Source of the DNA: Halapricum salinum
Lineage (GTDB): Archaea; Halobacteriota; Halobacteria; Halobacteriales; Haloarculaceae
Reading direction: 5' to 3'
NCBI RefSeq assembly: GCF_004799665.1
Contig: NZ_CP031310.1
Coordinates: 860,887-924,886 of the forward strand
Length of the DNA: 64,000 nucleotides
Each line of letters begins with the position of its first letter. Position 1 is the stretch's first letter. The translations under genes were made by a program, and so were the position numbers. Under the pieces are notes generated by a model. It saw only the letters and a list, made by a program, of their open reading frames with translations, was not told where the DNA came from and did no database searches. Positions 5,151-60,084 of the stretch are shown piece after piece.

Positions 5151-5290
5151 ACCAAGCACGGAAAGCCCTCCACTCGCTGGCTAGGAATCGTTGCCTGCAC
5201 CGCAAACAACAAGCACGGAAATCCCTCCACTCGCTGACTAGGAGACGGTGATAGTGACGCCACCAAGCAGGGAAAGCCCTCGCCTCGCTC
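5151..5290. repeat. Three imperfect direct repeats (about 30 bases, 54-57-base spacing)
   Basis: The unit AAGCACGGAAAGCCCTCCAC, followed by TCGCTGGCTAGGA, starts near 5154, is repeated with few changes near 5211, and a more diverged copy (AAGCAGGGAAAGCCCTCGCC) starts near 5265. The last copy merges into the left end of the inverted-repeat element described at 5272-5861. The copies are too few and too variable for a CRISPR array, and no cas gene is present. Confidence 0.7.
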
Positions 5291-5861
5291 GGGGCTCCGG
5301 GACTCGCTGCGCTCCTCGCATCCGCTGCGGTGCTTACTTCGTCCGGGAACCGCCGAGCGAGTCTCGCCCTTTCAATCCTCCAGGCACCGCACTGCGGCCG
5401 CAGGCCTGCCCTTCCCCGGGTCGCTCGATAAAACTCGCTCCCGGCCACCGCGGGGCGGTCAGGAAGCGTGTCGCGCGGCGGACGCCGCGCGACCGGGGAG
5501 GTGCGGGAGACGTGACCGAAGGAAACGTCTCCGAATGAACGAGCGGGGAGAGACGGCCCGCGAGTGTGGGGTCACAACAATGTGGTTGCGGTGCTGTCCT
5601 GGCGTCCTCGTGAGCAGGGCGGGACCTTCGGTCCCGCTGGCAGCCGGCGCAGAGCGCCGGCGACGAAGCGAACGAGGGCTCGGAAGACGAGCGGAGCGAG
5701 TCTTCCGGCGGACTGAAAGGGCGAAGCACGCTCGCGACGAAAGCGAGACGTGACCGAAGGGAACGTCTCGATAACGCGAACGGGGAGCGAAGCGACCCGT
5801 GGAGGGAGTGAAACGACCGAGGATATGCCGCGTAGCGACCGCGACCGTGGTGAGGGCTTTC
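5272..5861. other. Large non-coding inverted-repeat element with many hairpins
   Basis: No credible gene lies between hef and the thermosome gene. The stretch is bounded by inverted repeats: GAAAGCCCTCGCC at 5272-5284 and its near-complement at 5849-5861. A second nested pair is GCCCTTTCAATCC at 5366-5378 against GGACTGAAAGGGC at 5710-5722. Inside are strong hairpins: an 11-bp stem at about 5468-5491, a stem with a C(TTCG)G loop at about 5619-5637, CCGGCGC/GCGCCGG at about 5644-5660, GGAAGAC/GTCTTCC at about 5681-5705, and two copies of an AGACGT/ACGTCT hairpin at about 5505-5532 and 5743-5770. The GGACTGAAAGGG motif also frames the element at 58765-59309. It could be a structured RNA or a family of dispersed non-coding elements. 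Confidence 0.7.
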
Positions 5862-5952
5862 GAGACGTTGTGAGTCTCTGCTGTGTAATCGACTGCAGGT
5901 AGCTAAGCCAGTCGAGAAAGTCAGTAGCGACTACCGAACAGCGTCACACACG

Positions 5953-58764: not shown

Positions 58765-59309
58765 TATGGCGTGCGCTGGCGAGTGTGCCGAACGGAGTGA
58801 GGCCACGAGTCAGGAGCGAGACCGACGGTCTCGCTGGCCCTGCGGGCGACCCGTGAGTCGCCCGCAGAACAGCGTCGCGCGAGGGACGAATGAGTGACCA
58901 CCGGGAACGAATGAGTCGGTTGGGGAGGGTGTGGCTGCGGTGGGTGGGACTGAAAGGGGCCGTACTCTCGGCGACGTCCGAAAATCGCGTACGCGATTTT
59001 CGGTTGACAACGGAGTGAGGAGCGCAGCGAGCCCCCCGAGTCGAGAGTACGGGGGCTTTCTGGACCTGCGGAACTGCAGAGTAGACTCAGAAAGCCCCGA
59101 CAGGGTCGGAGGCTGCGGCTCGCTGTGCTCCTCGGCCTTCGGCCTGCGGTGCTTGCGTCGCCTCGCTCTCCGACCCTGTCGCCCCTTTCAGTCCCACCCA
59201 CCGCACAGCGCCCACGCCACGCCCTCCCCAGCCGACTCACTCGCCTGCGGCTCGTTCGTCCCTCGCACGCTGCTGGCTCAGCAGAGACGCTTCGCCAGCG
59301 CGCGCCACA
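58765..59309. other. 545-base non-coding element that folds as a four-way junction
   Basis: There is no credible gene between nikR and trx. The outer arms are complementary: a perfect 25-bp pair (58936-58960 with 59181-59205, containing GGGACTGAAAGGGGC), continuing outward with gaps to TATGGCGTGCGCTGGCG at 58765-58781 against 59293-59309 (15 of 17 matching). Inside are three closed stems: A, CCGTACTCTCG (58960-58970)/59042-59052, enclosing a perfect 26-base palindrome at 58978-59003; B, GGGGCTTTCTG (59052-59062)/59088-59098; C, a perfect 13-bp stem CGACAGGGTCGGA (59098-59110)/59169-59181, with a GGCC-TTC-GGCC tip. Adjacent stems share their junction base, leaving none unpaired. It shares the GGACTGAAAGGG motif with 5272-5861. 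Confidence 0.8.
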
Positions 59310-59779: not shown

Positions 59780-59935
59780 ATGAGCTCAAGCGACGGCGGC
59801 GGACTGATGTCCAGTGCCGGCCTCGTCCGGTACTTCGACGCCGAGGACCGCAACGCGATCCGAATCGACCCCAAGACGGTGGTCGCCTTCGGCGCGATGA
59901 GCGGCATCCTCATCCTCATGCTGAACGCCCTGTGA
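59780..59935 (+). CDS. secG: Protein translocase Sec61-beta subunit
   Basis: The short 51-residue product is clearly recognisable: [20 protein letters not shown], then [20 protein letters not shown], and a single C-terminal membrane span ([11 protein letters not shown]). Archaeal Sec61-beta is the small third subunit of the SecYE translocon and sits with its N-terminus in the cytoplasm. The CTTAGG box 24-32 bases upstream fits a leaderless mRNA. The MITE-like element begins at its last base. Confidence 0.95.
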
Positions 59936-60016
59936 TAGTGATTACTGTAGGTCTGTTCCAAATCGACAGCCCGGGGTCGGGCGGTCGGAGTGGTAAATCG
60001 CTACAGTAATCACTAT
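59935..60016. mobile_element. 82-base MITE-like element with 16-bp perfect terminal inverted repeats
   Basis: ATAGTGATTACTGTAG (59935-59950) and its exact complement CTACAGTAATCACTAT (60001-60016) bound a 50-base interior without coding capacity. Counting the repeats from GTGATTAC inwards, both ends are flanked by TA, as expected for TA-targeting (IS630/mariner-like) elements. It sits right behind the secG stop and may also act as its 3' hairpin. No transposase is encoded. Confidence 0.65.
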
Positions 60017-60084
60017 AAATCGCCCCGACCCACTGGAGCCCGGACCGCGATATTTTCAACGACGGGCCGCCAACCCGCGGCCAC

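What the first reader, a model, noticed from the sequence alone, without database searches (positions are those of the whole stretch)
58765..59309. Non-coding element that forms a four-way junction with no unpaired junction base
A perfect 25-bp outer stem (58936-58960/59181-59205) encloses three stems, A (58960-59052), B (59052-59098) and C (59098-59181), and each stem starts on the base where the previous one ends. The four junction bases (C, G, C, G) can each pair with either neighbour, as in a branch-migrating junction. Chance cannot readily explain 25-, 13-, 11- and 11-bp stems plus a 26-base palindrome arranged end to end. It may be a structured RNA, a cruciform DNA site, or a non-autonomous element.
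Basis: seen in the sequence. Interest (0 to 1): 0.75.

Follow-up and report, generated by a model that had tools for sequence, protein, structure and literature searches.

The report
Haloarchaeal repeat of paired hairpin units
The folded stretch is one copy of a scattered, non-coding DNA repeat found in about half of the salt-loving archaea sampled; its striking four-armed shape arises because two copies of a hairpin-bearing unit sit head to head, while the part that evolution actually keeps folded is the hairpin inside each unit, on one DNA strand only.

Summary
A perfect 25-bp stem, three abutting stems and a 26-base palindrome lie at 58767-59307, and the fold is far beyond shuffles (z -11/-12). 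It is one of roughly 16 diverged copies in this 3.45-Mb haloarchaeal chromosome. Each copy is a mosaic of a ~270-nt unit: end module, then M1 (GGGTGGGACTGAAAGGGGC), a hairpin S1, then M2 (GGGGCTTTC). The window copy is two units head to head. M1 pairs with M1', M2 with M2', and the two S1 hairpins are arms A and C, so a four-way junction without unpaired bases follows automatically. Within a copy the two halves match no better than halves of different copies (p=0.93), so the junction is not what is kept. S1 is kept: 110 distinct S1 stems are 92% Watson-Crick paired (50% when shuffled), with G.T over A.C 45:13 and GNA-loop motifs 67:0 on the unit strand, which points to single-strand folding. 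M1 occurs in 155 of 293 Halobacteriales genomes and almost nowhere else in the phylum. This genome has no Y1/RAYT transposase, so this is not a standard REPIN. Best reading: a dispersed, strand-specific hairpin repeat, probably acting as ssDNA. RNA is not excluded.

The parts
58767..59307 (.). whole element: two units head to head (inward-facing pair)
   Evidence: ends match TGGCGCGCGCTGG / CCAGCGCGCGCCA ends of other copies
58767..58935 (+). end module X of the left unit (TGGCGYGCGCTGGCGA ... GCGAGGGACGAATGAG ... TCGGTTGGGGAGGGTGTGG) with internal small hairpins
   Evidence: conserved in units of several other genera
58942..58960 (+). M1 of the left unit, GGGTGGGACTGAAAGGGGC
58961..59051 (+). 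S1 hairpin of the left unit (arm A); contains the 26-nt palindrome 58978-59003 and a GNA-loop hairpin at 59020
59052..59060 (+). M2 of the left unit, GGGGCTTTC
59052..59098 (.). arm B: M2 of the left unit paired with M2' of the right unit
59090..59098 (-). M2 of the right unit (GAAAGCCCC on + strand)
59099..59180 (-). S1 hairpin of the right unit (arm C)
59181..59199 (-). M1 of the right unit (GCCCCTTTCAGTCCCACCC on + strand)
59200..59307 (-). end module X of the right unit
58790..58800 (+). GARCGNAGYGA motif (GNA-loop mini-hairpin) in module X
59020..59030 (+). GARCGNAGYGA motif (GNA-loop mini-hairpin) in left S1

Best explanation
The element is an inward-facing pair of two units of a dispersed, non-coding, mosaic hairpin repeat family that is restricted, as far as sampled, to Halobacteriales. 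SHOWN: the unit architecture; many diverged copies; strict covariation of the hypervariable S1 hairpin inside each unit on one strand; the four-way junction as a by-product of inverted pairing; presence/absence at syntenic sites; gain or loss of whole hairpin modules. INFERRED: the unit strand folds as single-stranded DNA (during replication, or extruded by negative supercoiling), helped by GNA loops. The fold is what lets the sequence persist and spread as a non-autonomous element, through an enzyme that is not the known Y1/RAYT transposase; hairpins are lost by slippage between the GGGGC repeats at the S1 borders. Any benefit to the host is unproven.
For: Copies: 63 BLAST pieces at about 19 places in G000, ~16 of them clear elements. 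Exact M1 core in 155/293 Halobacteriales genomes, reversed control 0, up to 67 per genome; one lone match in ~280 other genomes of the phylum. S1: 110 distinct stems, 1216/1320 Watson-Crick pairs vs 661 +/- 16 with shuffled partners; all four pair types at most positions; GT+TG 45 vs AC+CA 13, p=3e-5. Loops: GNA triloops 74 on the unit strand vs 9 opposite, only 8 GNRA; GARCGNAGYGA 67 vs 0; 5.2/kb in own elements vs 0.11/kb outside. Unit strand folds better than its complement with RNA and DNA energies (p~1e-9). Arms not co-maintained within a copy (p=0.93). Spread/turnover: G006 copies L210 and L281 are 91% identical over 385 nt at different places and differ by two clean insertions of a ~60-nt double-hairpin module; the L042 copy is absent from the syntenic gap in congener G004; presence, absence and remnants upstream of tsr3. 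GNA loops closed by C:G are unusually stable in DNA (PMC4686876) and were required for hairpin extrusion at phage N4 promoters (PMC4496689).
Against: No transposase or other mover was identified, and no two copies in G000 are near-identical (best ~87%), so no recent movement is seen in this genome. G.U tolerance and better folding of one strand are equally expected of an RNA; strand-biased deamination could also raise G.T over A.C. Units were collected by M1 and kept only if at least 6 of 12 S1 pairs matched, which inflates pairing somewhat. The modest bias for units to point at the next gene (54/83, p=0.008) hints at a role that a purely selfish element does not predict.
Confidence: 0.6

Rival explanations
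1. The unit is a structured RNA, cis-acting or a trans-acting ncRNA; M1/M2 are its conserved core and S1 a variable peripheral helix.
For: Strand-specific covariation with G.U excess; conserved sequence motifs flanking a variable helix; unit strand folds better with RNA energies too; modest co-orientation with the next gene.
Against: No Rfam match. Hairpin loops are GNA triloops rather than GNRA/UUCG tetraloops (74 vs 8 GNRA, 0 TTCG). At the tsr3 sites the unit lies upstream of the TATA-like ACTTTT box near the start codon, so not in that mRNA (read by eye). Outward pairs leave only about 24-34 nt between M1 and M1' and no TATA was seen there in the examples read. Tens of diverged copies per genome are unusual for an ncRNA.
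Confidence: 0.22
2. It is a REPIN/BIME: inverted REP doublets moved by a REP-associated Y1 transposase (RAYT) or another IS200/IS605 TnpA.
For: Inverted doublets, intergenic, dispersed, alternative long-hairpin/clover folds, no target duplication seen; REPINs are inverted doublets of this sort (PMC3116915).
Against: PF01797 has no match in G000 (~16 copies), nor in G122 (65 exact M1), G061, G160 or G077, and several copy-poor genomes carry it. The unit is about ten times longer than a REP and has no GTAG/CGTC tag.
Confidence: 0.08
3. It is a double-stranded cruciform or Holliday-type site whose four-way junction is recognised, for example by Hjc.
For: Perfect junction geometry and long perfect stems.
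Against: Arms of one copy are not co-maintained (p=0.93); many copies lack an arm or are single units; strand asymmetry of pairs and loops.
Confidence: 0.04
4. The perfect stems are a mutational by-product (quasi-palindrome correction by template switching), with no selection on folding.
For: S1 is hypervariable yet nearly perfect; hairpin modules and whole S1 arms are gained and lost cleanly.
Against: Does not readily explain why M1/M2 stay conserved across families, why G.T exceeds A.C, or why GNA loops sit only on the unit strand.
Confidence: 0.06

Closest known systems
REPIN / BIME (REP doublets, bacteria; PMC3116915)
   Same: intergenic, dispersed, inverted doublets with conserved tags flanking palindromes, mosaic arrangements, able to fold as a long hairpin or a clover
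   Different: ~270-nt units instead of ~20-40 nt; hypervariable S1; no Y1/RAYT gene in this genome or in some copy-rich genomes
Haloquadratum PATEs and small mobile repeats, SMRs (PMC3119063)
   Same: haloarchaeal, transposase-free, no target duplication, palindromes; SMRs insert into palindromes of other elements, as the hairpin modules do here
   Different: PATEs lack terminal inverted repeats and derive from IS605 elements; SMRs are 80-110 bp with copies commonly >95% identical; here 541 bp with terminal inverted arms and mostly 70-85% identity. Sequences were not compared directly
Repetitive/double-hairpin elements of mitochondrial genomes (PMC2800124)
   Same: intergenic hairpin-forming repeats with scattered distribution and intra-genomic dispersal
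   Different: unrelated host and sequence; no two-tag unit of this kind known to me
Phage N4 virion RNA polymerase promoter hairpins (PMC4496689)
   Same: small DNA hairpins with a G..A loop closed by C:G that form on one strand under supercoiling
   Different: phage promoters read by a phage polymerase; no such polymerase or promoter function shown here
Integron attC sites (general knowledge)
   Same: conserved ends, hypervariable but paired stem, folded single strand is the active form
   Different: no integrase association was tested and no cassette arrays were seen

Membership tests
REPIN / REP-RAYT | inverted doublet of a repeated palindromic unit | tested here: met
REPIN / REP-RAYT | Y1 (RAYT/TnpA) transposase in the genome | tested here: not met
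   PF01797 absent from G000 and from copy-rich G122, G061, G160, G077
REPIN / REP-RAYT | GTAG or CGTC tag beside the palindrome | tested here: not met
   M1/M2 flank consensus shows no such tag (read by eye)
PATE (Haloquadratum) | no terminal inverted repeats | tested here: not met
   terminal arms 58762-58782/59292-59312 are 86% complementary
PATE (Haloquadratum) | near-terminal palindromes related to IS605-type elements | not tested
   no IS605 end sequences were compared; TnpB-only elements were not searched
SMR (Haloquadratum) | 80-110 bp, copies commonly >95% identical | tested here: not met
   541 bp; copies mostly 66-88% identical over long matches
MITE | terminal repeats matching a known transposon and target-site duplication | tested here: inconclusive
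   terminal inverted arms present; no duplication visible in flanks or at the one syntenic comparison, where the flanks do not align well; no parent transposon sought beyond PF01797
Known structured RNA family | match to an Rfam covariance model | tested here: not met
   no match at E<=1
Integron attC | IntI integrase and attC core sites | not tested
   integrase association not searched
DNA cruciform / junction-resolvase site | four-way junction conserved as a structure | tested here: not met
   halves of one copy no more complementary than halves of different copies; arm-less copies

The most novel reading that the evidence does not exclude
The units are an archaeal class of strand-specific DNA hairpins that extrude under negative supercoiling (GNA loops, as at phage N4 promoters) beside promoters. 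They would be kept and copied because the extruded strand is bound by a dedicated protein that both regulates the neighbouring gene and mobilises the unit.
Probability: 0.1. Interest if true: 0.85.

Novelty: new variant of a known kind. Interest (0 to 1): 0.6.

Why it matters
About half of the sampled Halobacteriales genomes carry this repeat, in up to ~67 exact-core copies, and I found no description of it in the searchable literature. It offers an unusual natural data set: a stem that changes sequence freely while staying paired, on one identifiable strand, between two nearly invariant tags. It also looks like REPINs yet occurs in genomes without the RAYT enzyme, so either another mover exists or such repeats persist without one. 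Haloarchaea include genetically tractable hosts, so DNA versus RNA folding can be tested directly.

Tried and rejected
Rfam search: none. Phage collection: none; viral contigs: none. Pattern scan of genome contigs with the arm-B hairpin: one haloarchaeon (Haloglomus halophilum, L080) among 37 hits, the rest unrelated taxa and taken as chance. The idea of a strict promoter-facing cis element (27/33 in a first, partly f17-heavy sample) weakened to 54/83 in a larger sample and was dropped as the main reading. Empty site for the window copy: in congeners the gene next to nikR differs, so no clean empty site. Empty site for L034: only the right-hand flank aligned. One Pfam call failed on a mis-framed ORF. 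A handle slip sent the first tsr3 search to another genus; it was repeated. Literature searches for the motif letters and for haloarchaeal palindromic repeats found nothing on it. The resemblance of TGGGACTGAAAG in M1 to CRISPR-repeat 3' ends is from memory and was not pursued.

Full report
WHAT IS THERE. The longest perfect inverted repeat is 26 nt against at most 14 in shuffles. The element spans 58767-59307 in a convergent gap between a NikR-like gene and a thioredoxin gene.

COPIES. BLAST of the region against its own genome (G000, 3.45 Mb, one contig) gives 63 pieces at about 19 places, of which about 16 are clear elements. Folding twelve of them shows one layout: ends TGGCGCGCGCTGG / CCAGCGCGCGCCA; GCGAGGGAYGAG; AATCGGYTGGGGAGGGTGTGG; then GGGTGGGACTGAAAGGGGC (M1), a hairpin (S1), GGGGCTTTC (M2), and the mirror image. 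Copies differ in S1 and lose arms: L036 and L039 lack arm A, L042 lacks arm C. In L036 M1 runs straight into M2.

WHY THERE IS A PERFECT FOUR-WAY JUNCTION. The element is two units head to head. M1 pairs with M1' (the 25-bp stem), M2 with M2' (arm B), and the two S1 hairpins are arms A and C. Since S1 abuts M1 and M2 in each unit, no base is left unpaired; and since M1 ends in C and M2 begins with G, the junction bases can also extend S1. Geometry alone produces the oddity. If the junction mattered, left and right halves of one copy should match each other better than halves of different copies. They do not (mean alignment score 52 within, 62 between; permutation p=0.93; nine copies).

WHAT IS CONSERVED. 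Units also occur singly, or as outward-facing pairs with about 39-51 nt between M1 starts. From many genera I collected 110 distinct S1 stems by a search for M1, then the best M2 with at least 6 of 12 S1 pairs. They are 1216/1320 Watson-Crick paired against 661 +/- 16 with partners shuffled. Most positions show all four pairs; position 8 is nearly fixed as T-A. Mispairs are strand-asymmetric: G.T 45, A.C 13 (p=3e-5; shuffled 109 and 86). Perfect hairpins with GNA triloops number 74 on the unit strand and 9 on the other; GNRA tetraloops 8; the motif GARCGNAGYGA 67 and 0. In G000 that motif is 47 times denser inside elements than outside, + in left halves and - in right halves almost throughout. 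The unit strand folds more stably than its complement with RNA and with DNA energies. So one strand, single-stranded, is what folds.

DNA OR RNA. The GNA loop closed by C:G is unusually stable as DNA (PMC4686876), and that sequence was required for hairpin extrusion at phage N4 promoters (PMC4496689). RNA hairpins more typically end in GNRA or UUCG (general knowledge). At tsr3 the unit lies upstream of the promoter-like box. These lean to ssDNA; no transcript data were available, so RNA stays the main rival.

DISTRIBUTION AND DYNAMICS. Exact M1 core is in 155 of 293 Halobacteriales genomes (reversed control: none) and in one of about 280 other genomes of the phylum. It is patchy within genera. 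Partial matches lie on haloarchaeal plasmids, none in phages or viral contigs. In G006 two copies at different places are 91% identical over 385 nt and differ by two clean insertions of a ~60-nt double-hairpin module. The L042 copy is missing from the syntenic convergent gap in congener G004. Upstream of tsr3 in one genus the unit is present, absent, a remnant, or M1 fused to M2 without S1 (L245). GGGGC ends M1 and starts M2, so slippage between these repeats would delete S1; that is inference.

MOVER. The Y1 family PF01797 is absent from G000 and from copy-rich G122, G061, G160 and G077. Membership in REP-RAYT is therefore not met, though the element works like a REPIN in layout (PMC3116915). 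PATEs and SMRs of Haloquadratum (PMC3119063) are the nearest haloarchaeal parallels.

GENE CONTEXT. A first sample suggested that core units point at the next gene (27/33). A larger one gives 54/83 (p=0.008) for single units, and 12 divergent, 11 tandem, 4 convergent for outward pairs. Genes were called by a simple composition rule, so this is a modest, provisional bias.

VERDICT. A real, widespread, apparently undescribed haloarchaeal repeat family; the four-way junction is a by-product. Literature coverage is limited to open papers, so prior description elsewhere cannot be excluded.

Noticed in passing
window 5155-5870: A second member of the family: an outward-facing pair (GAAAGCCCTCGCC..CGCCCTTTCAATCC at 5272-5379 and GGACTGAAAGGGCG..GAGGGCTTTC at ~5711-5861), preceded by two extra tandem copies of the M2-side half (~57-nt period)..
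   Followed up: partly
window 59934-60018: Short inverted repeat TAGTGATTACTGTAG ... CTACAGTAATCACTA flanking about 50 nt right after a small gene; could be a tiny inverted-repeat element. Read by eye.
   Followed up: no
L210 1600-1800 vs L281; also L032, L043: A separate ~60-nt double-hairpin module (TGGTYCGA-hairpin-TCGTCATCMCG-hairpin) inserted inside units in different genera.
   Followed up: partly
L179, L131, L168, L180, L242, L246: Tandem partial copies of S1'-M2 downstream of the unit, period about 45-60 nt; several copies can still pair with the same S1.
   Followed up: no
L033, L036, L040: Inside M1 of some left units a pair of small hairpins is flanked by a direct repeat GGGACTGA, like an 8-bp target duplication.
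   Followed up: no
L133, L131 upstream of M1: Tandem ~27-nt repeats GGTGACRCANNCCACCG upstream of the unit.
   Followed up: no
table: Sharp within-genus contrasts in copy number (for example g35: 0,0,0 vs 31,25,40; g37: 4 vs 67) suitable for finding a co-occurring gene.
   Followed up: partly
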